DNA of 36,469 bases from Anaeroplasma bactoclasticum (GCA_023663825.1 JAMPGQ010000016.1:1-36469), one strand, 5' to 3'. Positions 72 to 30,275 are shown, numbered from the stretch's first letter. Notes: generated by a model not told the origin, from the sequence alone. Numbers and translations: made by a program.

Positions 72-1019
72 ATGGCATACGATGAGAATAGTTTTCTAAA
101 AGAAAATAATGAAATATTATCTATTCTCCTAATAGATAGAACATCTAATAAGAACATAAAATGGTGTTCAGATAATTACGAAATCAAGGGATTATATTTC
201 GATGATTATATCACTTCTGATAATATTATGGGTAAAAGCTCTTTTATTATAAAACCTAGAAGTCAAAAAACGAAAAAAGAACAACAAAAAAGAAGTAAAG
301 ATGCAGCAGAGGTTTTTACCCCATCTTGGATATGTAATCGCCAAAACAACTTGATTGATGAGGAATGGTTTCATTATCCAAATGCTTTTAATATTGAAAC
401 AAACAATGAATGGTCTAGTACTCCAGAAGTCCTTTTTCAGAATGATAAGACATGGGAAAGTTATATCAAAGATACAAGGCTAGAAATCACATGTGGGGAA
501 GCTCCATATCTTGTTAGTAGATATGATACTGTTACTGGCCAAGCAATAGATATAAAAGAACGAATTGGACTTTTAGATAGAAAATTAAGAGTAGTAAGTG
601 AAAATGCAGCTTCAGATGAGGAATGGTATAGAAGTGTTATATTGAGTTACCAAAATATTTATGGATACGATTATCAAGGGGATAATGTTTTTTTGGCAAG
701 ACAAAACTTATTCTTTACATTTATAGATTATTACAAGGAAAGATTTAATGAATTACCATCAAAAGAAAAGATGATGGAAATCGCAACTATAATCAGTTGG
801 AATATTTGGCAAATGGATGGATTAAGAATGGTAATCCCAAATAGTTGTAAATTGAAAAAACAAACACAAGCTAATTTATTTGGAGAAGAATCTATTACGG
901 GATCAGGATGCCTTGGTTGCCAAAAAGATGACATACGACTACATAATGGTACTTATTGTTTAGTAATGGACTGGGAAAAAGACAAGAAGACCAGATTTGT
1001 GGATTTGATTCGGAGGTAG
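72..1019 (+). CDS. Restriction-modification small subunit with partial N6-adenine methylase motifs
   Basis: 315 residues; GGAG ribosome binding site six bases before the ATG. Residues 79-84 (AEVFTP) resemble motif X of gamma-class adenine methylases. Residues 137-147 (LEITCGEAPYL) look like an altered SAM-binding motif I, with TCGEAP where LDPACGSG is usual. The 200-260 region (RQNLFFTFIDYYKERF, then ISWNIWQMDGL) matches the helical part seen in proteins annotated as restriction endonuclease subunit M. No catalytic (N/D)PPY motif is present. That motif is found instead near the C-terminus of the next gene, 4 bp downstream, so the two proteins probably assemble one methylase. Cysteines near residues 279-282 and 292 could bind metal. 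Family assignment is from recognised motifs; the division of labour is inference. Confidence 0.75.
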   Translation: MAYDENSFLKENNEILSILLIDRTSNKNIKWCSDNYEIKGLYFDDYITSDNIMGKSSFIIKPRSQKTKKEQQKRSKDAAEVFTPSWICNRQNNLIDEEWFHYPNAFNIETNNEWSSTPEVLFQNDKTWESYIKDTRLEITCGEAPYLVSRYDTVTGQAIDIKERIGLLDRKLRVVSENAASDEEWYRSVILSYQNIYGYDYQGDNVFLARQNLFFTFIDYYKERFNELPSKEKMMEIATIISWNIWQMDGLRMVIPNSCKLKKQTQANLFGEESITGSGCLGCQKDDIRLHNGTYCLVMDWEKDKKTRFVDLIRR

Positions 1020-1023
1020 TTGT

Positions 1024-4000
1024 ATGAGTAGTAATAACATAAAAAAGTTTAATAATACATTTGATTACAAATTAATATACATTTTTAGAATAAATGATAC
1101 AGTTCATAAAGGAGCATTAAAAATAGGTGATGCAACTATTCATACATCTAAATCCTTTACGGATTTATTGCCTAATTGCCATGAGCTAAATTATTGTGCT
1201 AGAAAGAGAATTGATGAATACACTTCAACAGCAGGAATAGCTTATGAATTATTACATACTGAAATTGCAGTTTATCAAGTAAATGATTCTACAAGTAAGA
1301 AAAAAGGACAAGTTGTTGCTTTTAGGGATCATCATGTTCATGATGTCTTAAAACGTTCAAATATCAAAATGAAATATTTTGATACTAATAGAAAGCAAAA
1401 TGAATGGTTCATAGTGGATTTAGAAACAGCTAAAAGAGCAATCCAGTGCGTAAAAAATGAAAAGAAATCTTTAGATGGACAAGAAATAACAGCAAATAAG
1501 AATCCTATTACATTTAGACCAGAACAAACAGAAGCAATAAAGAAAACAATTAAAAGATTTAAAGATTCTGATAGAATGCTGTGGAATGCGAAAATGCGAT
1601 TCGGAAAAACTTTGTCTGCACTTCAAGTTGCAAAAGAAATGGGCTTTAAAGCAACTATTATTATCACTCATAGACCTGTTGTAAGTGATGGTTGGTATGA
1701 TGACTTCAATAAAATATTTTGCGACAAAGCAGAATATAAATTTGGTTCTAAAACTTATGGAGAATCATCAATAAACAAACTAGCAAGTTCAAATAATCCA
1801 TTTGTTTATTTTGCTTCAATTCAAGATCTTAGAGGCTCTGCTGCTGTGGGTGGCAAGTTTGATAAAAATAATGAAATCTTTGATATTTCTTGGGACTTTA
1901 TTGTTATTGATGAAGCACATGAAGGAACACAAACCAGTTTGGGAAAAGCAGTTATTGAAGAATTAATGAATAATAAAAAAAATCATCAGCCTAAAGTCTT
2001 AGAATTATCTGGAACTCCTTTTAACCTATTAACTGATTTTGAAGAAGCAAGCATTTATACATGGGATTATATTATGGAACAAGAAGCTAAACAAGATTGG
2101 TATCTAAATCATTTTGGAGACTCAAACCCATATGAGGAATTGCCAAGAATGAATATCTTTACGTACCATCTTGAAAAATATATCACAGGCTTTATGGATA
2201 TAGAAGATAAAGCATTTAATTTTAAAGAATTTTTTAGAACTTGGACAGGTGATATTCTAAAGGATGGTAAAGCAATCCCACTTGAAGAAAAAGTTGGAGA
2301 ATTTGTTCACCAAAAAGCTATTGTAAGTTTTCTAGATTTGATATGTAAAGAATCAAATTTAACAAATTATCCATTTGCGAATGATGAATATAGAGATTTT
2401 TTTAGACATACTTTGTGGATTGTTCCTGGAGTCAAAGAAGCAAAGGCATTAAGCACCCTCTTAAAGAAACATCATATTTTTTCTAATTTTAACATTGTAA
2501 ATGTTGCCGGAGATGGCGATGAAGAAATTAATACAAGTGATGCATTACAAGCAGTAAAAAATGCAATGACAAAACATCCAGAAAACACCTATACCATCAC
2601 TTTATCATGTGGTAGATTAACAACAGGTGTTTCTGTCCCAGAATGGACAGCAGTATTGATGTTGGCAGGATCTTATTCAACCGCAGCATCCCAATATTTA
2701 CAAACAATATTTAGAGTTCAAACTCCTGCAAATATTAATGGAAAAATAAAAGAGAATTGCTATGTGTTTGATTTTGCTCCTGATAGAACTTTAAAAATGA
2801 TTGCTGAATCTGTTCAATTATCTGCTAGAACAAAATCAAAAAATCCAATCGCAGAAAAACAACTGGCCTTATTCTTAAATTTCTGCCCTGTGATTTCTAT
2901 TGAAGGAACAAGCATGAAAGAATTTAAGGTTGGAATGTTGCTTCAAGAATTAAAAAAAGCTTATGCTGAAAGAGTTGTTAAAAATGGCTTTGATGATGCA
3001 CGATTATATAACGATGAATTACTTAAATTAGATAATTTTGCACTTGAAGAATTTGAGAAGCTAAAGAAAGTAGTGGGTGCATCAAAAGTATCTGGAAAAA
3101 TCACAGACATAGAAATCAACAAAGAAGGCTTTACAACTGAAGAATATGAAAAAGTAGAAAAAGTCGAAAAAAAGTCAAAGAAAGAATTAACAGATGAAGA
3201 AAAAGAACTTCTAAAAAAGAAAAAAGAGCAAAATGAAAATAGACAAAAGGCTATCTCTATCTTAAGAGCAATTTCGATTAGAATGCCATTATTGGTATAT
3301 GGTATGGATGGAGACATTGATACTGAAATCACTATTGATAACTTTGTTGACTTAGTAGATGACTTATCTTGGGAAGAGTTTATGCCTAAAGATGTAACAA
3401 AGGAAGTTTTCAAAAAATTTACTAAGTATTATGATAAAGATATGTTCATTTCTTGTAGTAGAAGAATTAGGTATATATCTAAGACGGCAGATGAACTAGA
3501 ACCAAAAGAAAGAATAATTAAGATAGCAAAATTATTTGCTACATTTAAAAATCCAGATAAGGAAACAGTATTAACACCATGGCGTGTTGTTAATATGCAT
3601 CTAGGAAATACTTTAGGTGGATATTCCTTTTTTGATGAAAAATTTATTAATGAGCTTGAGGAACCAAGACTTATTAATCTAGGGAAACAAACAGAGTCAG
3701 TCTTGTTCAATCTTGAATCAAAAGTTTTGGAGATTAATTCTAAAACGGGACTCTATCCACTTTATGTAGCATATAGTTTATATCGTTATAAATGCGATTC
3801 AACAGAGAAAAAAGAATTATCCTTTAAAGAAAAACTATCTATTTGGGATTATGTGATTTCTAATTCTATTTTTGTTATATGTAAAACACCAATGGCAAAG
3901 TCTATAACCAAAAGAACATTACTAGGGTATAGAAATGGCAAAGTTAAAATGCATTCCTTTGATGATTTGATAATGCAATTAAGAAATAAGCAAGCACAAT

Positions 4001-5085
4001 TTATTCAAAAAATATTGAATCCAGTTTTTTGGAATTTAGGAGGCAAGAGTCCAATGAAATTTAATGCAATAGTCGGTAATCCACCATATCAAATACTAGA
4101 TGGTGGAGCACAGGCAAGTGCAACACCAGTTTATAATAGATTTGTTGAAGTTTCAAAAAAAATAACAAATGAATATGTTTCATTAATTATGCCTTCACGT
4201 TGGATGACTGGTGGAAAAGGACTAGATGATTTTAGAAGTATGATGATTAAGGATAAACATATTCTTAGATTATTTGATCATTTAAACTCTAGAGATTGTT
4301 TTGAAAATGTGGATATAAAGGGAGGTGTTTGTTATTTTCTATGGGATAAAAATAGTGAAGATTTATGTGATGTTTTTTCATTCACATCGGATGGAAAATT
4401 TCATTCAAAAAGGTATTTATCAGAAGGCGATGATATTTTTATTAGGGACATTAGATTGATTTCTATAAAAAATAAAATTGTCAAATCAAACCCAAATATG
4501 TTGATGGGAATCGTTTCTGCTCGTAAACCATATGGTTTACAGGCAGAAACGATGCTTATGGCATCAAAATATGGATTACCTGATTTTTCAGATGAACCAT
4601 TTGATGATGGTTATAGGATACTTGGTTTGGGTGAAAAACAGAAAAGGATGTATAAATATTTACCTAAAAATTATCCTATCCCTAAAACAAATGAAGCATT
4701 AAACAAATTTAAAGTCTTTATTGCTGAAGCTTATGGCTGTGGAGCAATCGGTGAAGTGCCTAGCACACCAGTGCTAAGTTTTCCTGGAGATTTGTGTACT
4801 GAAACTTTTTTGCAAATTGGGCCATTTGAAACACAAATTGAAGCAGAAAATTTAATAAAATATATAAAAACAAAAACTTTTAGAGCTCTTGTAAGCATCC
4901 AAAAACAAACACAGCATACAACAAAAAAAGTTTACAGATTCGTGCCTATGCAAGATTTCACTGAATATTCAGATATTAATTGGAATCTATCAATTAAAGA
5001 AATAGATAATCAATTATATAAAAAATATGAGTTTAACAAAGATGATATAGAGTTTATTGAAAATAAAATTCCGAATATGGACTAA
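1024..5085 (+). CDS. GIY-YIG-like nuclease / SF2 helicase / Eco57I-type methylase fusion (R-M large subunit)
   Basis: 1353 residues. Residues about 15-130 resemble a T5orf172/GIY-YIG nuclease: YIFRI followed by LKIGD, then RKRIDEY, and NEWFIVDL at the end. Helicase motifs follow: MRFGKT at 191-196 (Walker A), DEAH at 296-299, LSGTPFN (motif III), and QTIFRVQTP (motif VI-like). A lysine/glutamate-rich, probably coiled linker covers roughly 685-745. NPPY at 1019-1022 is the catalytic motif IV of an N6-adenine methylase of the Eco57I type, followed by SLIMPSRW and a probable target-recognition region. A convincing SAM motif I is absent here and seems to be carried by the preceding gene. Together they should form an ATP-dependent or type IIG/I-like restriction-modification enzyme. 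The domain order is read from sequence; cutting activity and target are unknown. Confidence 0.8.
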   Translation: MSSNNIKKFNNTFDYKLIYIFRINDTVHKGALKIGDATIHTSKSFTDLLPNCHELNYCARKRIDEYTSTAGIAYELLHTEIAVYQVNDSTSKKKGQVVAFRDHHVHDVLKRSNIKMKYFDTNRKQNEWFIVDLETAKRAIQCVKNEKKSLDGQEITANKNPITFRPEQTEAIKKTIKRFKDSDRMLWNAKMRFGKTLSALQVAKEMGFKATIIITHRPVVSDGWYDDFNKIFCDKAEYKFGSKTYGESSINKLASSNNPFVYFASIQDLRGSAAVGGKFDKNNEIFDISWDFIVIDEAHEGTQTSLGKAVIEELMNNKKNHQPKVLELSGTPFNLLTDFEEASIYTWDYIMEQEAKQDWYLNHFGDSNPYEELPRMNIFTYHLEKYITGFMDIEDKAFNFKEFFRTWTGDILKDGKAIPLEEKVGEFVHQKAIVSFLDLICKESNLTNYPFANDEYRDFFRHTLWIVPGVKEAKALSTLLKKHHIFSNFNIVNVAGDGDEEINTSDALQAVKNAMTKHPENTYTITLSCGRLTTGVSVPEWTAVLMLAGSYSTAASQYLQTIFRVQTPANINGKIKENCYVFDFAPDRTLKMIAESVQLSARTKSKNPIAEKQLALFLNFCPVISIEGTSMKEFKVGMLLQELKKAYAERVVKNGFDDARLYNDELLKLDNFALEEFEKLKKVVGASKVSGKITDIEINKEGFTTEEYEKVEKVEKKSKKELTDEEKELLKKKKEQNENRQKAISILRAISIRMPLLVYGMDGDIDTEITIDNFVDLVDDLSWEEFMPKDVTKEVFKKFTKYYDKDMFISCSRRIRYISKTADELEPKERIIKIAKLFATFKNPDKETVLTPWRVVNMHLGNTLGGYSFFDEKFINELEEPRLINLGKQTESVLFNLESKVLEINSKTGLYPLYVAYSLYRYKCDSTEKKELSFKEKLSIWDYVISNSIFVICKTPMAKSITKRTLLGYRNGKVKMHSFDDLIMQLRNKQAQFIQKILNPVFWNLGGKSPMKFNAIVGNPPYQILDGGAQASATPVYNRFVEVSKKITNEYVSLIMPSRWMTGGKGLDDFRSMMIKDKHILRLFDHLNSRDCFENVDIKGGVCYFLWDKNSEDLCDVFSFTSDGKFHSKRYLSEGDDIFIRDIRLISIKNKIVKSNPNMLMGIVSARKPYGLQAETMLMASKYGLPDFSDEPFDDGYRILGLGEKQKRMYKYLPKNYPIPKTNEALNKFKVFIAEAYGCGAIGEVPSTPVLSFPGDLCTETFLQIGPFETQIEAENLIKYIKTKTFRALVSIQKQTQHTTKKVYRFVPMQDFTEYSDINWNLSIKEIDNQLYKKYEFNKDDIEFIENKIPNMD

Positions 5086-6032: not shown

Positions 6033-6123
6033 TGGCGGAGCAGATGGGATTCGAACCCATGCATCAGTTACCCGATCTACTTCCTTAGCAGGGAAGCCTC
6101 TTGAGCCTCTTGAGTACTACTCC
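6033..6123 (-). tRNA. tRNA-Ser(GCU)
   Basis: On the minus strand the 91-nt sequence begins GGAGTAG and ends CTGCTCC-G-CCA, a closed acceptor stem with encoded CCA. The anticodon loop CTGCTAA gives anticodon GCT (reads AGC/AGU). The long variable arm is typical of class II tRNA-Ser. The T-arm contains GGGTTCGAATCCC. The gene has its own promoter and terminator. Confidence 0.97.
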
Positions 6124-6658: not shown

Positions 6659-6792
6659 AGCCTCTAACAACAAAGGAAAAAGACTTAATTAAAAGAATTG
6701 AAAAGAAGACTAAGAAAATAAGTTTTAATGATAAAAAGGAAATGTATTTAAAACAAACTGACAGAAATTATAAGGATGGGGATAGAAATTGA
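6655..6792 (+). CDS. Small charged hypothetical protein, 45 aa
   Basis: The reading frame starts with the ATG overlapping the previous stop (ATGA) and ends in TGA overlapping the TTG start of cvfB, so translational coupling on both sides is likely. The preceding AAGGAGAT supplies a strong binding site. The peptide begins MKPLTTKEKDLIKRIEKKTK, is lysine-rich and probably helical, and ends DGDRN. No family recognised. The tight packing is the main evidence that it is real. Confidence 0.65.
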   Translation: MKPLTTKEKDLIKRIEKKTKKISFNDKKEMYLKQTDRNYKDGDRN

Positions 6793-7634
6793 TTGAATTA
6801 GGAGTGATGAACCAATTAAAGGTTCTTCGTAAAACAGATTTGGGATATATGATTTCCGATGGAAGTGAGGAAGTTTTATTACATTATCGCGAGGCGTTAA
6901 ACGAATTAGAAATCAATCAAATGGTGAATGCTTATATCTATACGGATAAAGAAAATAGAAAAACAGGAACAATGGCTACACCAAATTTAATGATGGGAGA
7001 GCCAAACTTTGTACGTGTGGTAAATCGTATTAATGGTGTCGGAGTTTTTGTAGATAATCATACGCCCAAGGATATTTTAATCTCTAAGGATTATCTTCCG
7101 TATGATGAGGAAGAGTGGCCAATTGAAGATGATTTAATTTTTTGTGAGCTTAAAATAAAGAAAAATTCTTTAGCTGCAAAGCCTGTGAATCGATTTGATG
7201 TTTTGGCATTACATAGTAAAACTAGATATGTAGAAAAAGAACAGGTGTGTGCATATGTCCTACGTATTGCAGATAAGGGAATTGGTTTAATCACAAAGGA
7301 ATTAGTGTATATTTTTGTTCCGATTTCTCAGTTTAGAGGAAAGTATCGTTTAGGAGAAGAGGTCACAGTGACCATCACCAAAATGCTTGATGGAGAAGCT
7401 TATGGCAGCTTAAATGAACATAAGGAGCTTCTTATGGATGCTGATAAAGAAACTATATTAACCTATTTAAAAGAGCATAATGGGGTAATGCCTTTAACTG
7501 CCAAGTCAAGTAGTGAAGCAGTAGAAAAGTTTTTTCAGATGTCTAGAAAGGCTTTTAAGAGAGCATATGGTGCTTTATACAAGGAACATTTAATAGATTT
7601 TGATGAAGAAAAAACATATTTAAGAAAGCTATAG
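6789..7634 (+). CDS. cvfB: S1-like RNA-binding protein CvfB
   Basis: 281 residues from a TTG start with an AAGGATGGGG site upstream. CvfB/YitL family proteins carry tandem S1-like OB folds and a C-terminal winged helix, and bind RNA; in Staphylococcus they affect virulence gene expression. Visible hallmarks are VLLHYREALNEL, ENRKTGTMATP (the conserved region after the first OB fold), GVGVFVDN...PKDILISKDYLP (an S1-like domain near residues 80-105) and a winged-helix-like end (AVEKFFQMSRKAFKRAYGAL). The length is normal for the family. It is the last gene of its operon, with a terminator overlapping its stop codon. Confidence 0.88.
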   Translation: MIELGVMNQLKVLRKTDLGYMISDGSEEVLLHYREALNELEINQMVNAYIYTDKENRKTGTMATPNLMMGEPNFVRVVNRINGVGVFVDNHTPKDILISKDYLPYDEEEWPIEDDLIFCELKIKKNSLAAKPVNRFDVLALHSKTRYVEKEQVCAYVLRIADKGIGLITKELVYIFVPISQFRGKYRLGEEVTVTITKMLDGEAYGSLNEHKELLMDADKETILTYLKEHNGVMPLTAKSSSEAVEKFFQMSRKAFKRAYGALYKEHLIDFDEEKTYLRKL

Positions 7635-7649
7635 AGATATAGCTTTTTT
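7626..7649 (+). terminator. Terminator after cvfB
   Basis: AAGCTATA (7626-7633) pairs with TATAGCTT (7638-7645) around a GAGA loop, followed by T's. The stem includes the cvfB stop codon. Confidence 0.85.
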
Positions 7650-7708
7650 CCAAATTGTACATATATGATGTTAGATTTAAAGGTAAAATGTAGGAAGAGG
7701 TGAGGACA

Positions 7709-10048
7709 ATGGAGCTAGAAGAAGGATTTATAGTTTGTAATGCTTCTATGAAGGAAAAGATTTTAAAAGAAGCATCAACCATTAAAAATTATATCTTTTT
7801 AACGCAAAAAGAATTAAAGAGTCGTTTAACTTTTTCTTTAAAGCCAAACGCAATCTTTCGGTTGATGAAACATTATGGATTTTCCTATTCTTTGAGTTTA
7901 GAATATGCAAATGCGGTCACTTTGATTGAAGATAAAACCTATTCTAATCCAAAGCTAGATAGTATTGTTTCTGTTTTACATTATTTAAAGGAAGAGAATT
8001 TATTAATAGAGGATCCTTTATTTTTATTTCGCTTGAAGCAGTTTCCACTTACCTTTATTGATCCAGAGTCTACTAAGGAATATCAGAGTTTAAAAAATTT
8101 AGCTGAACAATATACAAAAGTCTATGAGGTTTATCCTGAGAATAAAAGCTATACACCTCTTGTGTATGAATTTAAAACGATATTAGAGGAATCTCTTTTT
8201 GTAATGAATCAAATCAAAGAACTCTTAAGAAAGGGCATAGCTTTAGAGCATATTTATGTAGTTCATGCAGATCATGAATATTTGTTTTTATTGAGACGTC
8301 TTTCCAAAAGCTTTGGAATTCCTTTTGAATTTGAAGGATACAAAAATCTTTTGTCTTCATCCTTTGTTAAGAAGTTTTTAGAGCTTTGCAAAACTAATTC
8401 CTCTTTTCAAACCATTATAGAACAGCTAGACTCTAAGAATAGTTTATATCCTATTCTTATTGATATTTTAAATGATAATGAATTGATAGGAGAAAGTCCT
8501 CAGGAATGCATTGAGTTTTTAAAGGCAATTTTAAAAAAGACAACCTATCCACAAAAACGATATGTAGAAGCAGTGCAGTTTAAAAGTGAAACTATTTTAT
8601 TTTCTAAAGCAGATTATGTATTTTATGTAGGCTTTAATTTAGGAAATTCACCTAAAATTCATAGAGAAGATGGCTTTTTAAATGATGCAGATTTGACACT
8701 TTTAAATCAGTCCACTTCCTTTGAAAAGAATGCATTAGAATTTATGCGTTTAAAAAATTGGATTTCATCTAATTCCAATTTGACGTTAACCTATAAAAGA
8801 TATGTTAAAACAGAAAGTTTTACCCCATCTTTATTGATAGAGGATATGAAGCTTAAAGTGACAAAAAATCCTAAAGTATCCTTTGGTTATTCAAGGTTAG
8901 AGGATGAACTTCGACTTGTGGGGTTATATGACTTATATTTGAAGTATGGACAGTGGCATGAGGATTTGGAAAGCTATGGTATAGGGGATGCAAAATATAA
9001 AACCTATAATCATAAATATAAACCCGTATCTATAGAGGTAATGAAAAAGTATTTTGAAAAGAAACCACTACGTCTTGCCTATTCTAATGTGAAGCTTTAT
9101 TTTGCTTGTCCATTTTCGTATTTTGCTGATAGGATTTTAGGATTAAATGAATTCAAACCACAGATGGCAGCAAGAATGGGAACATTTTCGCATGCAGTAT
9201 TAGAGGATAGCTACTCTTCAGATTTTAACTTTGAAGAAGCAGTGCTTACCCATAAATCAGAAAATGTGACAGATGGTAAGGATGAATTCTTTTTTGACCA
9301 GATGGCCTCTGTCTTAAGAAATATAATTGATTTTAATCGTAGTCATGAAGAGATGAGTCAATTAAAATCAATAAAACGAGAAGCACATATAGAAATAGTT
9401 AAGGATGACTATACCTTTGAAGGCTATATTGATAAATTGATGTATACCATCAAGGATGGTGAAGTCTTTGCAGCAATCGTAGATTATAAGACAGGAGCTG
9501 ATATTGTCAGCTTAGATAATATCGAAGATGGCTTTCATCTTCAGCTTCCTTCCTATATGTATTTACTATCTAAGTACCCTTTATTTGCAGGTCTTAAGCT
9601 TCATATTTTAGGATTATATTTACAAAAGGTGAATATTGTTATCTTTGACAATAAATCAGATGTAGAAACGCAAATGGCTAAGAAATTTATGCTAGAGGGC
9701 TATAGCGTAGCTAAACCTGAACTTTTATCTATGCTAGATCCAACCTATCAAAAAAGTACATATATTAAATCCTTAGGAATGGGAAAGGATGGATTCTTAA
9801 GATACTCTAAAGTATTTTTGGAAAAACAACAGGAAGAGATTGTAGCGATGGTGGAAGGACTTTTAGATCAGGCATCAGCCTCTATACATCTGGGCGTATT
9901 TCCTATTGAACCAAAGAAAATTAATGGTAAGAATGCTTCCTGTACCTTCTGTAAATATAAGGATATTTGTTTCTATGATTATGAGGATTTAAAGGAGCTA
10001 ACCTATAAACCATTTGGAAAGACAGGTGAAGATAATGGCATGGACTGA
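7709..10048 (+). CDS. addB: ATP-dependent helicase/nuclease subunit B (AddB/RexB-like)
   Basis: 779 residues, shorter than the roughly 1160 of Bacillus AddB. The ATG at 7709 is chosen over a GTG at 7700 because AGGAAGAGG lies eight bases before it. The C-terminal half is a RecB-type nuclease: VDYKTG with D592 and K594, and GYIDKL shortly before. The four cysteines of the family's iron-sulfur cluster are present: C467 in YFACPFSYFAD, and C745, C748 and C754 in CTFCKYKDIC. The N-terminal half looks like a helicase-derived scaffold without a Walker A motif, as expected for a subunit that recognises Chi rather than drives unwinding. It overlaps addA by 14 bp. The pair resects double-strand breaks for RecA. 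Confidence 0.88.
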   Translation: MELEEGFIVCNASMKEKILKEASTIKNYIFLTQKELKSRLTFSLKPNAIFRLMKHYGFSYSLSLEYANAVTLIEDKTYSNPKLDSIVSVLHYLKEENLLIEDPLFLFRLKQFPLTFIDPESTKEYQSLKNLAEQYTKVYEVYPENKSYTPLVYEFKTILEESLFVMNQIKELLRKGIALEHIYVVHADHEYLFLLRRLSKSFGIPFEFEGYKNLLSSSFVKKFLELCKTNSSFQTIIEQLDSKNSLYPILIDILNDNELIGESPQECIEFLKAILKKTTYPQKRYVEAVQFKSETILFSKADYVFYVGFNLGNSPKIHREDGFLNDADLTLLNQSTSFEKNALEFMRLKNWISSNSNLTLTYKRYVKTESFTPSLLIEDMKLKVTKNPKVSFGYSRLEDELRLVGLYDLYLKYGQWHEDLESYGIGDAKYKTYNHKYKPVSIEVMKKYFEKKPLRLAYSNVKLYFACPFSYFADRILGLNEFKPQMAARMGTFSHAVLEDSYSSDFNFEEAVLTHKSENVTDGKDEFFFDQMASVLRNIIDFNRSHEEMSQLKSIKREAHIEIVKDDYTFEGYIDKLMYTIKDGEVFAAIVDYKTGADIVSLDNIEDGFHLQLPSYMYLLSKYPLFAGLKLHILGLYLQKVNIVIFDNKSDVETQMAKKFMLEGYSVAKPELLSMLDPTYQKSTYIKSLGMGKDGFLRYSKVFLEKQQEEIVAMVEGLLDQASASIHLGVFPIEPKKINGKNASCTFCKYKDICFYDYEDLKELTYKPFGKTGEDNGMD

Positions 10049-13000
10049 GATGCAAAATCAAGCAATTCATAAACGTGGAAGTAATTGTATTGTTTCAGCT
10101 GGTGCTGGTTCAGGTAAAACCGCAGTATTATCAGAACGTATTTTAACCTACTGTCTAGATGGTAAAGATATCTGTAGTTTTCTTGTCTTAACCTTCACCA
10201 ATGCTGCTGCACAAGAGATGAAGGAGCGCATTCGTAAGAAATTAATTGAAAATAATTTAAACGAACAAGCTAGTAGAATTGATAGTGCCTTTATCACCAC
10301 CTTTGATGCCTATAGCCTAGCTTTAGTAAAAAAATATTATTTTTATTTAGGTGTCGATAAAGATATTACAATTATGGATCAGGCTTTACTAGAGGTTAAG
10401 AAAAAAGAACTATTAGACCAAATGTTTGAAGAGCGTTATTTGATAAAGGATAAACGTTTCTTTAGTCTTTTAACAAAATATACTAAACAAAATGATGAAA
10501 ATGTTAAAAAGATGATTTTAACTATTTTGAGTAAACTAGAGTTAATTGTAGATGAAGAAGAATTCTGTAAAAATTATGAAGCAACCTATTATAATGAATC
10601 TTTTATACAATCTTTAGTTTCTAGATATGAGGGACTTGTGTTAGGTCGTGTGAAAGAATTCTATGAAGCGATGACCAAGCTTGCTGATGCTGCAAACACA
10701 GATACTTTAAGTCTTAAGCTTGCTTTAGAGATAGAACGGATTTTATCTGAAGCTAAACTAAGAACGTATGATGAAGCTGCTTCTTGGTTGCGACTACTTT
10801 CTTTACCTAGAATTAATCCTAAATCTGCTGAGTATGTGAAATCACAGAAGACGCTTTGCGGAGAACTTTTAAAAGAAATCAAATTGAAATATTTTTCTAA
10901 ATATGTTTTTTTAGAAGAAGCTAAAAGTGAATTATATGCAATAAAAGAGGATGTAACATATATTTTAGAGCTTGCTTTAGAGTTGAAGCATCAGCTAGAT
11001 GCATATAAATTTGAACTGATGACCTTCGACTATATGGATATTGCGAAGATGGCTATCCAACTTGTAAAAACAAAACCAGCAGTATTAGAAGAAATCAAGA
11101 ACAGCTTTACAGAGATTTTGATTGATGAATATCAGGATACCTCAGATATTCAAGAGACCTTTATTTCTTATATATCTAATCATAATTGTTATATGGTTGG
11201 AGATATTAAACAATCTATTTATCGCTTTAGAAATGCGAATCCATATATATTTAAAAGCAAATACAGTAAGTATACTAATTTAGAGGATGGAATTAAAATA
11301 GATTTAACGTATAATTTTAGATCTCGTAAAGAGGTGGTTGAGGATATCAACCTGATATTCTCAAATCTAATGTCATTAGAGGTTGGTGATGCCAATTATG
11401 CCGATGAGCATATGATGCGTTTTGGACAACTAAATTATGAAAAACAATCCAATGTTGAAAACTATCATATGAATATATTGACTTATGATGGACAAGAAGA
11501 ATTTACTGATGAGGAAGTAGAAGCCTTTATTTGTGGAAATAAAGTAAAGCAATTAATGAAACAGCGTCCTCTTTGTTTAAAGAAAGATAAATTTGAGCCT
11601 CTTGAGTATTCTGATATTGCGATCCTTATGGACAAAACGAAAAGCTTCATCACTTTTAAACGTGTATTTGAGTATTTGGGTATACCTTTGGCAATTGAAG
11701 CTGATGTGGATTTAAATGATTCTATTTTACCTAAATTATTTTCTAATATCTTTCTATGTATTGTAAATCATAATGAAGGCATAATAGATAAATCCTATGA
11801 GCACGCACTTGTGAGTGTAGGAAGAAGCTTCTTGTTTGAATATGATGATACTGAGCTTTGTGCAATGCTAAAGGAACATAAAGAAAATGAGCTTACGGCT
11901 TTAGTGGATACTCTTGCTAAAGATGTTAAGAATTTAGCGTTAGAAGAAATTTATTTTAGAATCATTGAAGATTTTAATATTTATGAGAAATTATCTTTTA
12001 TTGGAGAAGTAAATAGTTCGATTGTTGTATTAGAATATATTCATAATCTGTTTATGACAATGTCTTCTGCAGGAATGGGAATAAATGAAGCTTGTGCATA
12101 TTTTTCTAGTATATTTGAAAATCAAATTGCCTTAAAATATAAAATGGCTGAGGATTCAAAGGATTGTGTTCATATGATGACCATTCATAAATCGAAAGGA
12201 TTAGAATTTCCATATTGTATTTTTCCAATGCTTGGAAGTAAATTCAATCAAGCAGATATGAAGGAAAACTTTGGACTATCTACATCCTATGGACTTTATA
12301 TCCCTTTTTCAGATGAGACGAATAGTAATACAATCATTAAATCCTTAGTTGAGGATGAAATAAGGCAGGCTGATCTTTCTGAAAAGATACGGTTGTTTTA
12401 TGTAGCGTTAACTCGTACAAGAGAAAAGATTATTTTAATTTCTAAAAATTTGGATGTAGAAGAACCTATATCTTTAGAACGTGTTTCTTCCTTTAATCAG
12501 CTTTTATATACAAAACTATTTTTTAAAGAATATCATGAGCCTGTAGACATGGAAAAACAAGGCTTATCTTTAAAGTACCTGATGATGAAGCATCAGGTGA
12601 AAGAACTTATAGGAAAGCCAATTAGTTATCAAGAGGATCAATATGTAAGTGAAATCCAAGAAAAGAAAGCTATATCTAAAGAGCTTATTGAGCTTACAGA
12701 TTCTAATTTAAAACGAGCTATTGAGTTGGGTAAAAAGTTCCATGAATGCTTGGAGGTTTTAGATTTTCAAAATCCTCAAATCAATGCTTTACCAGTGGAT
12801 GATTTTATGAAGCAAGCCTTACAAAAGGTTTTAGTTACCACTGTGTTTGAAAATATTAAGGATGCTAAAACTTATCATGAACATGAATTTTATTTTGATT
12901 CTTATCATGGTATCATTGACTTGTTATGTATTTATAGGGATCATATTGACATCATCGATTATAAACTATCAAATACAAGCAGTGAAGAGTATTTAAGACA

Positions 13001-13100
13001 ACTAGGAGTGTATAAGAGTTATGTAGAAGCACATACTAGTTTACCTGTTTCCTGTTATTTATTATCTATATTAAAACAAGAAGTAAAGAAGGTTTTATAA
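10035..13100 (+). CDS. addA: ATP-dependent helicase/nuclease subunit A
   Basis: 1021 residues from the ATG at 10035 (AGGTGA five bases upstream). UvrD/Rep-type SF1 helicase with C-terminal RecB nuclease. Motifs: AGAGSGKT at 22-29 (Walker A), LIDEYQDTSD with D364 (Walker B), YNFRSRKEV (motif IV), HKSKGLEFP (motif V), LFYVALTRTREK from 787 (motif VI). The nuclease motifs are near the C-terminus: GKKFHECLE, GIIDLL and IDYKLS with D975 and K977. It unwinds and degrades DNA ends with AddB and loads recombination at Chi. It is somewhat shorter than the Bacillus protein (about 1230), but all catalytic motifs are present. The next gene starts directly after the stop codon. Confidence 0.95.
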   Translation: MAWTEMQNQAIHKRGSNCIVSAGAGSGKTAVLSERILTYCLDGKDICSFLVLTFTNAAAQEMKERIRKKLIENNLNEQASRIDSAFITTFDAYSLALVKKYYFYLGVDKDITIMDQALLEVKKKELLDQMFEERYLIKDKRFFSLLTKYTKQNDENVKKMILTILSKLELIVDEEEFCKNYEATYYNESFIQSLVSRYEGLVLGRVKEFYEAMTKLADAANTDTLSLKLALEIERILSEAKLRTYDEAASWLRLLSLPRINPKSAEYVKSQKTLCGELLKEIKLKYFSKYVFLEEAKSELYAIKEDVTYILELALELKHQLDAYKFELMTFDYMDIAKMAIQLVKTKPAVLEEIKNSFTEILIDEYQDTSDIQETFISYISNHNCYMVGDIKQSIYRFRNANPYIFKSKYSKYTNLEDGIKIDLTYNFRSRKEVVEDINLIFSNLMSLEVGDANYADEHMMRFGQLNYEKQSNVENYHMNILTYDGQEEFTDEEVEAFICGNKVKQLMKQRPLCLKKDKFEPLEYSDIAILMDKTKSFITFKRVFEYLGIPLAIEADVDLNDSILPKLFSNIFLCIVNHNEGIIDKSYEHALVSVGRSFLFEYDDTELCAMLKEHKENELTALVDTLAKDVKNLALEEIYFRIIEDFNIYEKLSFIGEVNSSIVVLEYIHNLFMTMSSAGMGINEACAYFSSIFENQIALKYKMAEDSKDCVHMMTIHKSKGLEFPYCIFPMLGSKFNQADMKENFGLSTSYGLYIPFSDETNSNTIIKSLVEDEIRQADLSEKIRLFYVALTRTREKIILISKNLDVEEPISLERVSSFNQLLYTKLFFKEYHEPVDMEKQGLSLKYLMMKHQVKELIGKPISYQEDQYVSEIQEKKAISKELIELTDSNLKRAIELGKKFHECLEVLDFQNPQINALPVDDFMKQALQKVLVTTVFENIKDAKTYHEHEFYFDSYHGIIDLLCIYRDHIDIIDYKLSNTSSEEYLRQLGVYKSYVEAHTSLPVSCYLLSILKQEVKKVL

Positions 13101-13598
13101 TTGAAAAAAGTTCATCCCTTTTCCCCTGTTTATAATCAGTGGTCTCATATTCTTATTTTAGGGTCTTTACCCTCTATTGCATCTGTTGAGCGAGGATTTT
13201 ATTATATGCATCCTCAAAATAGATTTTGGAAGGTTCTTTCAAAAATTTATGAAGAAGATGCATATTCTATGGATATTCAAGGAAAAACAGATTTTATTTT
13301 AAAGCATCATTTGGCTTTATACGATGTTGTTTTCTTTTGTGATATTAAGAATTCTAGTGATGCAAGTATTGAAAATGTAGTTTGTACAGACATAGAAGAA
13401 ATCCTAAAAGATTCAAGTATAGAAAGGATTCTTTTAAATGGAAATAAAGCCTACACATTATTTTGTAAGGCATATCCTCAGCTTAAGGATATAGCCTTAC
13501 CTCTACCTTCTACAAGCTCTGCAAATGCGAGGGTTTCACTTGATGAGCTTTCAAGAGTTTGGGAAGATGCTTTACTGAAAAGAAATATTTTGATATAA
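13101..13598 (+). CDS. DNA-deoxyinosine (hypoxanthine) glycosylase, UDG family 6
   Basis: 165 residues from a TTG start immediately after the addA stop; AAGAAGG upstream gives the binding site. The N-terminal GSLPSIASVERGFYY and HPQNRFWKVL are hallmarks of the uracil-DNA glycosylase superfamily branch that removes hypoxanthine (deaminated adenine). LLNGNKAYTLF and LPSTSSANAR correspond to the later active-site segments (S/N-containing loop). It begins base excision repair. Its position in an addAB operon fits a DNA repair role. Uracil or mismatch activity cannot be excluded. Confidence 0.85.
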   Translation: MKKVHPFSPVYNQWSHILILGSLPSIASVERGFYYMHPQNRFWKVLSKIYEEDAYSMDIQGKTDFILKHHLALYDVVFFCDIKNSSDASIENVVCTDIEEILKDSSIERILLNGNKAYTLFCKAYPQLKDIALPLPSTSSANARVSLDELSRVWEDALLKRNILI

Positions 13599-13624
13599 TG
13601 AAGAAGGGTACGAGGAGGATGATT

Positions 13625-14122
13625 ATGAAGTACTATCGTTGTGGAAAGATAATGACGACACATGGAATCAAAGGAGATTTAAAGATTAAGGTCACCTCTG
13701 ATTTTAATCGTTTTTTTAAAGGAAGCAAACTTTATATTTATCATAATAAAGAATATCTTCCTGTTGAAGTAGAAAAGGCTTCAGAGTTTGGGAAATATCT
13801 TTTAGTTAACTTTAAAGGCTTGCAAGATATCAATCTTGTTTCTAAATATCATCTAGATGAAATTTATGTGAGTGAAGAAGATAGAGAAGGACTAGATGAA
13901 GATGAATATTATTATAGTGATTTGGTCGGGTGTGAGGTTTATAATCAAGATAACGCTTATCGTGGTGTTGTTGAAGAAATTAAAGAAATGCCACAGTGTG
14001 ATTATTTATATATTTCCTATAACAATATGCATTATTATGTCCCTTTTATCAACGAGTTTGTCATAGAGGTAACAGATAAAATTATCATCCAGGAAATAGA
14101 GGGATTGATTCGTGAAAATTAA
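13625..14122 (+). CDS. rimM: Ribosome maturation factor RimM
   Basis: 165 residues. The ATG at 13625 is preceded by GAGGAGG at 6-7 bases; upstream in-frame starts lie inside or before that site. The N-terminal RimM barrel shows CGKIMTTHGIKGDLKIKV, and the C-terminal PRC-barrel shows EYYYSDLVGCEVY and YVPFINEFV. It binds ribosomal protein uS19 and assists 30S head maturation. It overlaps trmD by 11 bp, the classical rimM-trmD pairing. Confidence 0.95.
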   Translation: MKYYRCGKIMTTHGIKGDLKIKVTSDFNRFFKGSKLYIYHNKEYLPVEVEKASEFGKYLLVNFKGLQDINLVSKYHLDEIYVSEEDREGLDEDEYYYSDLVGCEVYNQDNAYRGVVEEIKEMPQCDYLYISYNNMHYYVPFINEFVIEVTDKIIIQEIEGLIREN

Positions 14123-14834
14123 GATTTTAACATTATTTCCTAATATGTTTGAAGGCATATTAGGAGAATCCATCTTAAAAAGAGCAATCTCTTCTCAAGT
14201 CTGTTCTGTTGAACTAGTTGATATGAGAGACTATTCTTTAGATAAGCATCATCATGTAGATGATACACCTTATGGTGGTGGTGCAGGTATGGTATTAGCT
14301 TGTGATGTTGTAGATCGCGCAATTGAGGCGAATACTACTAATGCTTCCTATAAAATTTTAATGACTCCTCAGGGAAGACCATATAAGCAATCCATAGCTA
14401 AAAAATTAGCTTCTAAAGAAGAATTGGTTTTGATATGTGGGCATTATGAAGGCTTTGATGAAAGAATCCGAGGATATGTCGATGATGAAATATCTATTGG
14501 AGATTATATTCTTACTGGTGGAGAGCTTGCAGCTGGAGTGGTTTGTGATAGTGTGATTCGTTTATTAGATAGTGCTATCCGAAAGGAAAGCAGTGAGGAT
14601 GATTCCTTTTCTGACGGACTATTAGAATATCCACAGTACACACGCCCTTTAGAATATAAGGGAGTATCTGTTCCTGAGGTGTTGGTAAATGGAAATCATA
14701 AACTGATCCGGGAATATCGATTGAAGGAATCTTTAAGAAAAACCTATTTAAGAAGACCAGATTTGTTAAAGAATAGAATGTTATCCAAAGAAGAAGAAAA
14801 ACTTTTAAAGGAAATCATAGAAGAATCCAAATAA
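14112..14834 (+). CDS. trmD: tRNA (guanine-N1)-methyltransferase
   Basis: 240 residues, GTG start inside the end of rimM. SPOUT-class enzyme making m1G37 in tRNAs, which prevents +1 frameshifting. Family signatures: LTLFPNMFEGILGESI at the N-terminus, DDTPYGGGAGMVL, ICGHYEGFDERI, and the trefoil-knot SAM site SIGDYILTGGELA. Normal length. Usually rplS follows trmD in Bacillota; here a terminator follows instead. Confidence 0.97.
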   Translation: MKIKILTLFPNMFEGILGESILKRAISSQVCSVELVDMRDYSLDKHHHVDDTPYGGGAGMVLACDVVDRAIEANTTNASYKILMTPQGRPYKQSIAKKLASKEELVLICGHYEGFDERIRGYVDDEISIGDYILTGGELAAGVVCDSVIRLLDSAIRKESSEDDSFSDGLLEYPQYTRPLEYKGVSVPEVLVNGNHKLIREYRLKESLRKTYLRRPDLLKNRMLSKEEEKLLKEIIEESK

Positions 14835-14846
14835 GGATTCTTTTTT
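14821..14846 (+). terminator. Terminator after trmD
   Basis: AAGAATCC (14821-14828) pairs with GGATTCTT (14835-14842), six-base loop containing the stop codon, followed by a T-run. Confidence 0.9.
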
Positions 14847-14892
14847 AATATCCTTATGACTTTTACGCATACTATACTTAGGTGATTTAGAA

Positions 14893-15663
14893 ATGATTCA
14901 ACGTATCTATCATTTTATCATGGATAAAAAAATACCGACTCTTGCAAGTGCTATTGCCTTTACTCTCATTATGAATGGAGGCTCTTTTCTCTTTTTATTT
15001 ATTATCATTTCAGGTTTTTTTTCTAATTCATTTCAAGAACTCATTTTGAATACAATAGAGGATGGAAGATTAAAGGAATTAATTGTCTATTTTTTCAACT
15101 ATCAAAATAATATATCGTATTCTATATTACTCGTCATAACGAGTATCTACTCTGCTTCCTCACTTTATTATCATTTAATTGGAATTGTTGAGTTTATTAC
15201 AGATACCTCCTACCAAATCAGCATCTCCAAAAGAGTTTTGGCAATTGGAATTACGATTTTTTATTTGCTGGGTTTAAATATTATTACTCTTCTCGCCAGT
15301 GAAATTATAATGCTTTTAAACTATTTTTATATGACTTTATCTATTGTTTTGTTGTTATTCATATTTATTTTAACTGTGTATGTAGTACAGGTGGTTAGTT
15401 TAAAAACGTATAACATAAAACGTTTGTATAAGGGGATTATTTTTACAACAATTTATTTTATTATCTTTACGATTGGTTTTATTATCTATTTAAAATTATT
15501 TTCAAATTTTAAGATTGTTTATGGTATTTTATCCTTCTTTATTATCTTATTTTTCTATATCTATATGATATCTATAGGAATACTATTAGGAATTAATTTT
15601 AACCATTTAAACATAAATATAAAGTTTTTGTCGAAAAATAAGATAGAGGAGGTGAAAGAATGA
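14893..15663 (+). CDS. YihY/BrkB family integral membrane protein
   Basis: 256 residues, AGGTGAT six bases before the ATG. The N-terminal MIQRIYHFIMDKKIPTLASA with a short AFTLIMNGG segment is typical of the YihY/virulence factor BrkB family (once called ribonuclease BN). About six membrane segments are visible, for example near 25-45, 75-95, 110-135, 140-165, 180-205 and 210-235. The molecular function is unknown across the family. The gene overlaps pdaA by 4 bp, so the two are co-transcribed. A perfect 10-base 0A-box-like sequence sits near its 3' end. Confidence 0.8.
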   Translation: MIQRIYHFIMDKKIPTLASAIAFTLIMNGGSFLFLFIIISGFFSNSFQELILNTIEDGRLKELIVYFFNYQNNISYSILLVITSIYSASSLYYHLIGIVEFITDTSYQISISKRVLAIGITIFYLLGLNIITLLASEIIMLLNYFYMTLSIVLLLFIFILTVYVVQVVSLKTYNIKRLYKGIIFTTIYFIIFTIGFIIYLKLFSNFKIVYGILSFFIILFFYIYMISIGILLGINFNHLNINIKFLSKNKIEEVKE

Positions 15664-16394
15664 AAAAAATTTTTCTAGGGGTTCTTTTAGGTTTATTCCT
15701 CTTTGTTGGTATAAAAGGACATGCCTATGGCTTTGGTTTAGTGAATAAAGGAAACACAAGACCAAGTGCTGGTAAATATGAAGCAATTTTAAAAGAAAAT
15801 GGTGGAGTATATCTTGGCCCAGATACGAAGGATATTTATTTAACCTTTGATTGTGGCTATGAAAACGGACATACTAAGATGATTTTAGAGGCTTTAAGAA
15901 AGACGGGTACGAAGGCAATCTTTTTTATTACAGGACATTATTTAAATTCTGCCACTGACTTAGTTATGGAAATGATTGAAGGTGGACACATTATAGGAAA
16001 TCATACGTATTCCCATAAAGATTTTACAAAATCCTCAAATGAAGAGATTTTGAATGATATAAAGAAATTAGAGAATGCTTTTAAAGAGAAGACAGGCTCA
16101 GATATGTCAAAGTATGTTCGTCCTCCAAGAGGAGAATTTGATGAAAGAAGCTTAAAACTTTTAAAAGATAATGGTTACGCCTCTGTCTTTTGGTCTTTAG
16201 CGTATGTAGACTGGCATCAGAAAGTCTTCCATGGAGATCACTACAGCTACAAACAGGTTATGAACCGTATCCATAACGGTGCGATTCTTTTAATGCATAC
16301 AGTATCAAAGGATAATGCAGTAGATTTAAAAGATATCATTATTCAACTAAAAAATGATGGTTATGTTTTCAAAACGATTGAGAGTGTGATATAA
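15660..16394 (+). CDS. pdaA: Polysaccharide deacetylase, PdaA-like (cortex muramic delta-lactam formation)
   Basis: 244 residues with an N-terminal signal peptide (MKKIFLGVLLGLFLFVGIKG). NodB-type deacetylase: TFDCGYENG with metal ligand D64, NHTYSH with H115 and H119, RPPRGEFDER, and ILLMHT near the end. The FD-GYENG motif and the overall length match PdaA, which deacetylates N-acetylmuramic acid to allow muramic delta-lactam formation in the spore cortex, needed for germination. AGGAGGTG lies before the start. It acts outside the forespore membrane. Evidence for PdaA rather than another deacetylase is the motif pattern; the host also has gpr, so it sporulates. Confidence 0.88.
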   Translation: MKKIFLGVLLGLFLFVGIKGHAYGFGLVNKGNTRPSAGKYEAILKENGGVYLGPDTKDIYLTFDCGYENGHTKMILEALRKTGTKAIFFITGHYLNSATDLVMEMIEGGHIIGNHTYSHKDFTKSSNEEILNDIKKLENAFKEKTGSDMSKYVRPPRGEFDERSLKLLKDNGYASVFWSLAYVDWHQKVFHGDHYSYKQVMNRIHNGAILLMHTVSKDNAVDLKDIIIQLKNDGYVFKTIESVI

Positions 16395-16426
16395 TAGTCT
16401 TATGAAGACTCGAGGTGACCTAGGAG

Positions 16427-17359
16427 ATGGCTGCAAATTTTATAATCCTAGCTGATGACTATTTAGTAGTAGATGCTAAATTAGAAGAAATAAAAAAAGG
16501 CTTTGACCTTGAGGTTGAGCCAATCCTATATAATGCAGAGGAAGAGGGGACCTACGCTATTGTTGATGAGCTTACTACAGTTTCTTTATTTGATGATACC
16601 AAATTTGTCATTGTAAGAAATGCTGAAAGCTTGTTATCCAAAAGTGATCATGCTTTCTTAGATTTATTAAAAGCTATGAATGACCAAAATAGTTCAAACA
16701 TATTGGTTTTAGTATTTATGGAGACTGTGGATGCTTCTAATGAGCAATATCAAAAGCTAAAACGATTTTCTTCTGTATTTGAAGCTAAAACGAAAAATAT
16801 CAATTTGGAAGAATATGCAATTCAAATGTTTAAAGAAGAAGGATACAAAATTGAATTGGATACTATTAAGCTGTTGGTAAGCTATACTGATAGCTTTTCA
16901 AAGCTAAGGAGCTTTATGGACCAACTAGAATGCTATAAGGCAGAGGAAAAGAAAATTACTAATGCAGATGTAACTCTTTTAATTCCTGAGCCCTTAGATG
17001 ATAATGTCTACGCTTTAATTGATGCAGTACTTTCAAATAATAAAAAGCTTATGCTAAAAGGATATCAGGATATGAAACTTAGAAGTATGCAGGCATCTAG
17101 TTTGATAAGTCTTTTAATTAATAAATTTCAAGAGCTATATAACGTAAATATATTAATTAAAGCAGGAATGAATCAAGCTTCCTTGGCAGAATTATTTCAT
17201 ATTTCCTCAGGCAGAGCATATTATATGGTAAAGAACGCAAAGGAGCATTCTTTAGAGACGATAGAAAGACATTTAGAACAGCTTGATACTCTTGATTACC
17301 AAATTAAAACAGGGAAAATAGATGGAAATATAGGTTTAGAACTATACTTTTTAAGATAA
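16427..17359 (+). CDS. holA: DNA polymerase III subunit delta
   Basis: 310 residues, usual for the family. It is the clamp-loader subunit that opens the beta sliding clamp. The AAA+-like N-terminal domain shows LADDYLVVDAKLEEIKKGFD, then TVSLFDDTKFVIVRNAE, and ILVLVFME. The C-terminal collar shows IDAVLSNNKKLMLKGYQDM and SLISLLINKFQELY and ends in KTGKIDGNIGLELYF. The CGAGGTG site at 16410-16416 is well spaced. It probably has its own transcription start, as a TATAAT lies at 16390-16395 next to the pdaA stop. Confidence 0.93.
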   Translation: MAANFIILADDYLVVDAKLEEIKKGFDLEVEPILYNAEEEGTYAIVDELTTVSLFDDTKFVIVRNAESLLSKSDHAFLDLLKAMNDQNSSNILVLVFMETVDASNEQYQKLKRFSSVFEAKTKNINLEEYAIQMFKEEGYKIELDTIKLLVSYTDSFSKLRSFMDQLECYKAEEKKITNADVTLLIPEPLDDNVYALIDAVLSNNKKLMLKGYQDMKLRSMQASSLISLLINKFQELYNVNILIKAGMNQASLAELFHISSGRAYYMVKNAKEHSLETIERHLEQLDTLDYQIKTGKIDGNIGLELYFLR

Positions 17360-30191: not shown

Positions 30192-30275
30192 GCAGATATG
30201 GCGGAATTGGTAGACGCGCTATCTTCAGACGGTAGTGGTTATGCCGTACGAGTTCGACTCTCGTTATCTGCACCA
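30192..30275 (+). tRNA. tRNA-Leu(CAG)
   Basis: 84 nt. The acceptor stem GCAGATA pairs with TATCTGC, discriminator A, encoded CCA. The anticodon loop TTCAGAC gives CAG (reads CUG). The class II variable arm and the T-arm (GAGTTCGACTC) are present. Own promoter and terminator. It marks the left border of the second accessory region. Confidence 0.95.

What the first reader, a model, noticed from the sequence alone, without database searches (positions are those of the whole stretch)
72..5085. Methylase divided between two proteins and fused to nuclease and helicase domains
The small subunit has motif X- and motif I-like segments (AEVFTP, LEITCGEAP) but no catalytic (N/D)PPY. The 1353-aa partner has NPPY at 1019-1022 but no recognisable motif I, and carries GIY-YIG-like and DEAH helicase domains. 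The SAM pocket and the catalytic motif would then be on separate chains, with an altered motif I. That is an unusual architecture for an ATP-dependent restriction system.
Basis: partly seen in the sequence, partly recalled or inferred. Interest (0 to 1): 0.7.

Follow-up and report, generated by a model that had tools for sequence, protein, structure and literature searches.

The report
Split DNA methylase fused to restriction translocase
Two neighbouring genes make a bacterial DNA-cutting defence system whose protective methylase is built from two proteins, one carrying the methyl-donor (SAM) half and the other carrying the catalytic half on the end of the DNA-cutting motor; it is a variant of the little-studied DrdVI 'split methylase' systems.

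Summary
Gene 72-1019 (315 aa) carries methylase motifs X, I, II and III but no (N/D)PPY. Gene 1024-5085 (1353 aa) carries a GIY-YIG-like nuclease, a DEAH translocase, NPPY (aa 1019-1022) and a target-recognition region.

The large protein also has motif X (ETVLTP, aa 847-852) and a motif-I-like segment (VLEINSKTG, aa 901-909). This second N-half ('N2') lacks SAM-site residues: 0 of 98 homologues have the motif II acid, and 93 of 96 have Lys at the first motif-I Gly. The small protein keeps them (118/118 acid; 116/118 motif III Asp).

Profile comparison identifies the small protein as M1 and the large C-terminal half as M2 of DrdVI, the published 'split methylase' family. Single-chain relatives join M1 (or S) directly to the NPPY half with no N2: phage FNU4 and viral contigs L222 and L234 (L222: 64% to M1.DrdVI, 44% to the M2 C-half). 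So the SAM half and the catalytic half most likely are on separate chains here. Predicted structures did not settle the geometry.

In two relatives the NPPY half lies in inverted cassettes beside a tyrosine recombinase, suggesting specificity switching.

Verdict: a new variant of a known kind.

The parts
72..1019 (+). Small subunit S (M1-type, 315 aa): SAM-binding N-half of a gamma-class N6-adenine methylase, no catalytic (N/D)PPY
   Evidence: PADLOC MTase_II PDLC03390 370 bits; hhalign to M1.DrdVI-type family 99.5%, E=1e-22
306..323 (+). Motif X of S (AEVFTP, aa 79-84)
   Evidence: E 117/118, T 117/118, P 118/118
480..506 (+). Variant motif I of S (LEITCGEAP, aa 137-145)
   Evidence: E, C, G, E, P each 118/118; aligned to EPACGSGNFL of M1.DrdVI
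660..683 (+). Motif II of S (YGYDYQGD, aa 197-204)
   Evidence: acid at D200 in 118/118
810..824 (+). Motif III of S (QMDGL, aa 247-251)
   Evidence: D249 in 116/118; aligned to HGDAL of M1.DrdVI
1024..5085 (+). Large protein (1353 aa): GIY-YIG-like nuclease, DEAH translocase, N2 pseudo-N-half, NPPY half and TRD
1063..1458 (+). GIY-YIG-like nuclease domain (about aa 14-145)
   Evidence: signature conserved in more than 85% of 88 homologues; T5orf172 only E=0.67 in Pfam
1501..3003 (+). ResIII/DEAH translocase (about aa 160-660; MRFGKT aa 191-196, DEAH aa 296-299)
   Evidence: PF04851 E=7.5e-15
3541..3978 (+). N2: conserved second N-half (about aa 840-985) lacking canonical SAM-site residues
   Evidence: hhalign to M2.DrdVI N-half 96.6%, E=6e-10
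3562..3579 (+). Motif X-like ETVLTP of N2 (aa 847-852)
3724..3750 (+). Motif I-like VLEINSKTG of N2 (aa 901-909); Lys907 where canonical motif I has its first Gly
   Evidence: K 93/96, G 95/96
4042..4473 (+). Catalytic C-half of the methylase (about aa 1007-1150)
   Evidence: PADLOC MTase_II PDLC03375 aa 1011-1352 E=2.3e-70; Pfam Eco57I aa 947-1093 E=6.3e-28
4078..4089 (+). Motif IV NPPY (aa 1019-1022)
   Evidence: invariant in A4
4474..5082 (+). Target-recognition region (about aa 1151-1353)
   Evidence: 22-42% identical in a same-genus genome whose aa 1-1000 are 88-100% identical

Best explanation
This is an ATP-dependent restriction-modification system of the DrdVI 'split methylase' type. 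The methylase is assembled from two chains: S (M1) supplies motifs X, I, II and III and holds SAM; the C-terminal half of the large protein supplies NPPY and the target-recognition domain. Because that half is fused to a GIY-YIG nuclease and translocase, the large protein with S both modifies sites (presumably m6A) and, at unmodified sites, translocates and cuts. N2, between translocase and NPPY half, descends from a methylase N-half that has lost SAM-site residues and probably docks the methylase onto the motor. Shown: domains, motifs, homology, natural fusions and splits, module co-occurrence. Inferred: the S/NPPY composite fold, SAM binding by S, m6A chemistry, ATP-driven cutting and the role of N2.
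For: S matches the M1.DrdVI-type family (99.5%, E=1e-22, motifs X-III aligned) and N2 matches the M2.DrdVI N-half (96.6%, E=6e-10). The NPPY half matches stand-alone MTase_II PDLC03375 and M2.DrdVI (34.9% by tblastn). M1-2.DrdVI was expressed in E. coli and assigned m6A at GCAGCC; M1-M2.MaeIV likewise at GCACY and is called a 'split methylase'. Natural fusions of S or M1 to the NPPY half: L029, L030, L149, L152, L153, phage FNU4, L222 and L234. L222 joins an M1 half (64% to M1.DrdVI) to an M2 C-half (44%) with M2's own N-half absent. Fused and split forms interleave on the S tree (at least 7 changes; L149 fused is sister to L150 split). SAM-site residues: S acid 118/118 and Asp 116/118; N2 acid 0/98. 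A fused S-NPPY chain is predicted with pLDDT 89, pTM 0.87.
Against: The large protein has its own motif X and motif-I-like segment in cis, so it could form a methylase fold by itself. Foldseek of the fused S-NPPY model gives only high-rmsd matches to known methylases (8-15 angstrom for the top R-M hits), so that model does not show a clean canonical fold; in the three-module model the N2-NPPY segment appears to match CamA more significantly (E=3e-16, rmsd 8-11 angstrom; the aligned region is inferred from the alignment length). No coordinates or inter-domain error were available. Coevolution over 75 triples was inconclusive. Motif I of S is altered (CGEAP instead of CGSG). No activity is known for this subfamily.
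Confidence: 0.75

Rival explanations
1. The large protein is a complete methylase in cis (N2 plus NPPY half, with a KSG-type SAM loop). S is a second SAM-binding-like subunit that packs elsewhere and is needed for assembly, DNA binding or regulation.
For: N2 has motif X and a conserved [DE]xxxK[ST]G loop. M2 proteins have N2 in cis with NPPY. The three-module model matches CamA with E=3e-16, apparently over N2-NPPY. Single-chain viral methylases L241 and L242 have an N2-like N-half with canonical motifs (DPANGIGN / CEIQP).
Against: N2 has lost the motif II acid in 98/98 while S keeps it in 118/118. Solitary fused S/M1-NPPY enzymes without N2 exist (FNU4, L222, L234). In architectures 1 and 2, N2 is on the translocase and the NPPY half is fused to S or free.
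Confidence: 0.18
2. Ordinary degenerate locus: S is a decaying methylase remnant and the large protein a Type ISP-like single-chain enzyme that works alone.
For: S lacks NPPY; Type ISP enzymes are single-chain nuclease-translocase-methylase-TRD fusions (PMC3874165).
Against: S is intact, 97% conserved in a sister genome and nearly always adjacent to the large protein or its parts. Its motif positions are nearly invariant.
Confidence: 0.04
3. Restriction-only or modified-DNA-targeting system with an inactive methylase (host DNA not methylated).
For: Variant motif I in S; no methylation data for this subfamily.
Against: NPPY invariant in A4; SAM-site residues conserved in S; DrdVI and MaeIV relatives methylate DNA.
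Confidence: 0.03

Closest known systems
DrdVI (M1.DrdVI, M2.DrdVI and translocase-REase; pDrdVI, CP031164) and MaeIV: 'split methylase' R-M systems
   Same: S homologous to M1 (E=1e-22); N2 plus NPPY half homologous to M2; separate small M1 without NPPY; DEAH translocase; GIY-YIG nuclease in relatives (PMC4996451)
   Different: M2 is fused to the C-terminus of the translocase-nuclease (two genes, not three); S is longer (315 vs 212 aa) with motif I EITCGEAP instead of EPACGSGN; sequence is remote
Bibersteinia Btr188ORF1790/ORF1760 (PMC4996451)
   Same: DrdVI-like; the paper describes one ORF similar to M1 at its N-terminus and M2 at its C-terminus, plus a GIY-YIG translocase gene
   Different: There M1 joins M2; here M1 is free and M2 joins the translocase. 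The Bibersteinia system was fragmented and inactive
Type ISP (LlaGI, LlaBIII)
   Same: Order nuclease - translocase - gamma-methylase - TRD; LlaBIII and LlaGI appear among Foldseek matches
   Different: Type ISP is one chain with an Mrr-like PD-(D/E)XK nuclease; here GIY-YIG-like nuclease and two chains, with the SAM half on the second
PADLOC REase_MTase_IIG PDLC03626 and MTase_II PDLC03375/PDLC03390
   Same: Existing database models for a 1359-aa fused protein, a stand-alone NPPY half and the small subunit
   Different: Filed as separate Type II/IIG proteins, not linked as one enzyme
CamA, M.TaqI, PglX/BrxX (gamma-class N6-adenine methylases)
   Same: Nearest folds by Foldseek
   Different: SAM motifs and NPPY on one chain; rmsd in these matches is high

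Membership tests
DrdVI-type split methylase R-M | Small M1 subunit with motifs X, I, II, III and no NPPY, homologous to M1.DrdVI | tested here: met
   hhalign 99.5%, E=1e-22; no NPPY in S
DrdVI-type split methylase R-M | M2 with an N-half and an NPPY/TRD half homologous to M2.DrdVI | tested here: met
   N2 96.6%, E=6e-10; PDLC03375 matches both the window NPPY half (2.3e-70) and M2.DrdVI (3.3e-57)
DrdVI-type split methylase R-M | DEAH translocase fused to a nuclease | tested here: met
   ResIII E=7.5e-15; GIY-YIG signature conserved
DrdVI-type split methylase R-M | M2 on a separate gene from the translocase (as in DrdVI itself) | tested here: not met
   Fused in the 1353-aa protein; treated as a variation of the family rather than a defining feature, because architectures interconvert on the tree
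DrdVI-type split methylase R-M | m6A at one asymmetric motif | not testable with these tools
   No methylome data for this genome
Type ISP | Single polypeptide | tested here: not met
   Two genes, with the SAM-type N-half on the second
Type ISP | Mrr-like PD-(D/E)XK nuclease at the N-terminus | tested here: not met
   GIY-YIG signature instead
Type ISP | Translocation-driven cleavage between head-to-head sites | not testable with these tools
   Needs purified enzyme
Gamma-class N6-adenine methylase | Motif order X-I-II-III-IV-TRD | tested here: met
   Across two chains here; on one chain in L222, L234, FNU4
Gamma-class N6-adenine methylase | N-half and C-half pack as one Rossmann sheet | tested here: inconclusive
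   pTM 0.87 for fused S-NPPY, but high rmsd to known methylases

The most novel reading that the evidence does not exclude
The NPPY/TRD half has two alternative N-half partners: S (with SAM) for methylation and the cis N2 half (KSG loop, no SAM) for restriction. Swapping partners would be the switch between modifying and cutting.
Probability: 0.1. Interest if true: 0.85.

Novelty: new variant of a known kind. Interest (0 to 1): 0.52.

Why it matters
The split-methylase family is mentioned only in passing in the papers found, and how the split enzyme works has not been described there. The natural fusions, splits and the shedding of N2 give a testable rule: the small subunit is the SAM half, the large protein's tail is the catalytic and recognition half, and the break lies just before NPPY. 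It would let two database entries filed as separate Type II methylases be read as one enzyme, and offers a natural break point for a split N6-adenine methylase. The inverted NPPY cassettes suggest that some hosts change the recognised sequence by exchanging the catalytic half at the NPPY codons.

Tried and rejected
(2) Predicted three-module chain from L087, using its single in-frame stop read through: pLDDT 81, pTM 0.63; without coordinates the packing of S versus N2 cannot be read. (3) Sequence search of solved structures with S, the large protein and their profiles: no meaningful hits. (4) Pfam GHL10 match of S (E=0.0066, below cut-off): rejected as chance. (5) NCBIfam: no family. (6) A regex recount of N2 presence mislabelled M1's own motifs as N2; the non-overlapping assignment is used instead. 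(7) The idea that the large protein alone makes the methylase: disfavoured because of the missing acid and the N2-free fusions. (8) A scan for more FNU4-like phage enzymes with the single protein found none.

Full report
WHAT IS THERE. The small gene (72-1019, 315 aa) and the large gene (1024-5085, 1353 aa) are 4 nt apart, with GGAGG ahead of the second start. Pfam finds ResIII (aa 162-333, E=7.5e-15) and Eco57I methylase (aa 947-1093, E=6e-28) in the large protein, and only a chance-level T5orf172 hit at the N-terminus. The GIY-YIG reading nevertheless holds: I18-Y19, K33-x-G35, R62, H106 and E127 are kept in more than 85% of 88 homologues. PADLOC has models for the small protein (MTase_II PDLC03390, 370 bits) and for the large protein's tail (stand-alone MTase_II PDLC03375, aa 1011-1352; REase_MTase_IIG PDLC03626). 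The window is the start of contig C7 of its genome.

The large protein is not without motif X and motif I. Just upstream of NPPY it has ETVLTP (aa 847-852), VLEINSKTG (aa 901-909) and FVICKTP (aa 950-956), which align with motifs X, I and II. These are conserved in homologues in every architecture. I call this segment N2. It is peculiar: Lys replaces the first motif-I Gly in 93 of 96, and the motif II position that is acidic in methylases is never acidic (0 of 98). In the small protein that position is Asp/Glu in 118 of 118, motif III Asp is present in 116 of 118, and C-G-E of motif I is invariant. So the residues expected of a SAM site are on the small protein, not on N2.

RELATIVES AND ARCHITECTURE. 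In 392 genomes of the same phylum 25 have a match to the small subunit; at least 560 stretches in GTDB genome contigs encode a relative, and the tree rows include Bacillota, Bacteroidota, Mycoplasmatota, Spirochaetota and Pseudomonadota. The modules occur in these arrangements: (1) S fused to the NPPY half, plus GIY-helicase-N2 (L029, L030, L149, L152, L153); (2) S, NPPY half and GIY-helicase-N2 as three genes (L045, L150); (3) S, N2-NPPY and GIY-helicase (L041, L078, L087, L096); (4) S plus GIY-helicase-N2-NPPY, the window type and the most common in this sample (76 of 89 tree rows; the sample was drawn by similarity to S). On the S tree architecture changes at least 7 times, and fused and split forms sit side by side (L149 fused, L150 split, support 100/89). 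Profile comparison shows that the N2 segments of all these proteins are homologous and that the motif X/I part of N2 occurs once per system: in arrangement 3, where it precedes the NPPY half, it is missing from the translocase.

LINK TO THE KNOWN FAMILY. A plasmid search with the NPPY half returned pDrdVI of Deinococcus wulumuqiensis NEB 479. Its M1 (212 aa) has canonical motifs (HGEVFTP, EPACGSGNFL, YGIELLEDN, HGDAL) and no NPPY; its M2 (539 aa) has N2 (FLDPCTKSGVFL) and NPPY. HHalign gives S versus a five-member M1 profile including DrdVI 99.5%, E=1e-22, and N2 versus the M2 N-half 96.6%, E=6e-10. M1-2.DrdVI was assigned m6A at GCAGCC after cloning and expression in E. coli (PMC6430315). [quoted passage not shown] A Bibersteinia homologue with M1 and M2 similarity in one ORF beside a GIY-YIG translocase is described in PMC4996451. 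I found no paper in the library describing M2 fused to the translocase or how the halves cooperate.

WHICH N-HALF COMPLETES THE CATALYTIC HALF. Solitary, N2-free single chains are the strongest evidence. Viral contig L222 (521 aa) is an M1 half (64% to M1.DrdVI) running straight into an NPPY half (44% to M2.DrdVI), with M2's own N-half absent; L234 is the same kind, and no GIY-helicase is seen in either fetched stretch (L222 has only about 0.3 kb upstream; L234 has more than 5 kb on both sides). Fusobacterium phage FNU4 has a 630-aa S-NPPY ORF, and no N2 or helicase module was detected in its 44-kb record; its annotated start lies inside the ORF, so the N-terminus is uncertain. Of 64 viral loci 50 have all four modules, and loci with only M1 and the NPPY half exist. 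Against this, two viral single-chain methylases (L241, L242) have an N2-like N-half with canonical motifs, so N2 probably descends from a working N-half.

STRUCTURE PREDICTIONS. A fused S-NPPY chain (L153) folds with pLDDT 89.4 and pTM 0.87, but its Foldseek matches among restriction-modification enzymes (PglX/BrxX, LlaBIII, MmeI, TaqI) have rmsd of about 8-15 angstrom. A three-module chain (L087, the one in-frame stop read as Gln) has pLDDT 81 and pTM 0.63 and matches CamA at E=3e-16 with rmsd 8-11 angstrom. I had no coordinates and no inter-domain error, so the predicted geometry is left open. DCA on 75 triples was uninformative.

SPECIFICITY. In a same-genus genome the small protein is 97% identical and aa 1-1000 of the large protein are 88-100% identical in 50-aa blocks, while aa 1151-1353 fall to 22-42%: the target-recognition region has been exchanged. 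In Prevotella corporis (L081) two further NPPY halves lie inverted behind the system, followed by an ORF I read by eye as a tyrosine recombinase. The inverted repeats include 28 nt at 96% over the NPPY codons. In a related contig (L141) the order is flipped: the expressed half is 82% identical to a silent half of L081 and the middle cassette is on the other strand. This resembles the inverting recognition genes of Type I systems.

VERDICT. A DrdVI-type split-methylase system in a two-gene, translocase-fused form. The two-chain SAM/catalytic split is well supported by sequence and unproven by structure or experiment. I call it a new variant of a known kind: the published members keep M2 and the translocase apart, although database models for the fused protein already exist.

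Noticed in passing
L081:6977-14967 (Prevotella corporis DSM 18810) and L141:6953-14969: NPPY/TRD halves as inverted cassettes with inverted repeats over the NPPY codons, next to a tyrosine-recombinase-like ORF (read by eye); the two loci hold the cassettes in flipped order, suggesting an invertible methylase-half switch.
   Followed up: partly
L053, L154, L155, L158-L164, L057 (viral contigs): Compact orphan S homologues (214-286 aa) keeping motifs X, I, II, III, with no NPPY partner found in the fetched stretch. Possibly decoys or borrowed SAM halves acting on a host system; unexplained.
   Followed up: partly
G000:C19 (L181:2082-7743): The same genome carries a second, three-gene DrdVI-like system: M1-sized ORF (242 aa), M2 547 aa with NPPY, GIY-helicase 961 aa, plus a 169-aa ORF upstream similar to part of S.
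   Followed up: partly
L048:2049-7010: S and the helicase gene are both interrupted as if the segment between them were inverted; could be a real inversion or an assembly error.
   Followed up: no
L046:6365-8417: S ORF runs to the NPPY region and ends ...VIGNPPLPKK, with the NPPY half in another frame beside it; a second intact fused S-NPPY gene lies next to it. Possible frameshift at the NPPY codons.
   Followed up: no
L034:9785-11797: Orphan N2-NPPY gene (671 aa) downstream of a complete window-type system.
   Followed up: no
window 6036-6123 and 30192-30272: Two tRNA genes, one on each strand, by Rfam.
   Followed up: no
window 6789-17359: Neighbourhood looks like core genome: CvfB-like, PD-(D/E)XK nuclease plus UvrD helicase pair (AddB/AddA-like), tRNA m1G methyltransferase, DNA polymerase III delta.
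   Followed up: no
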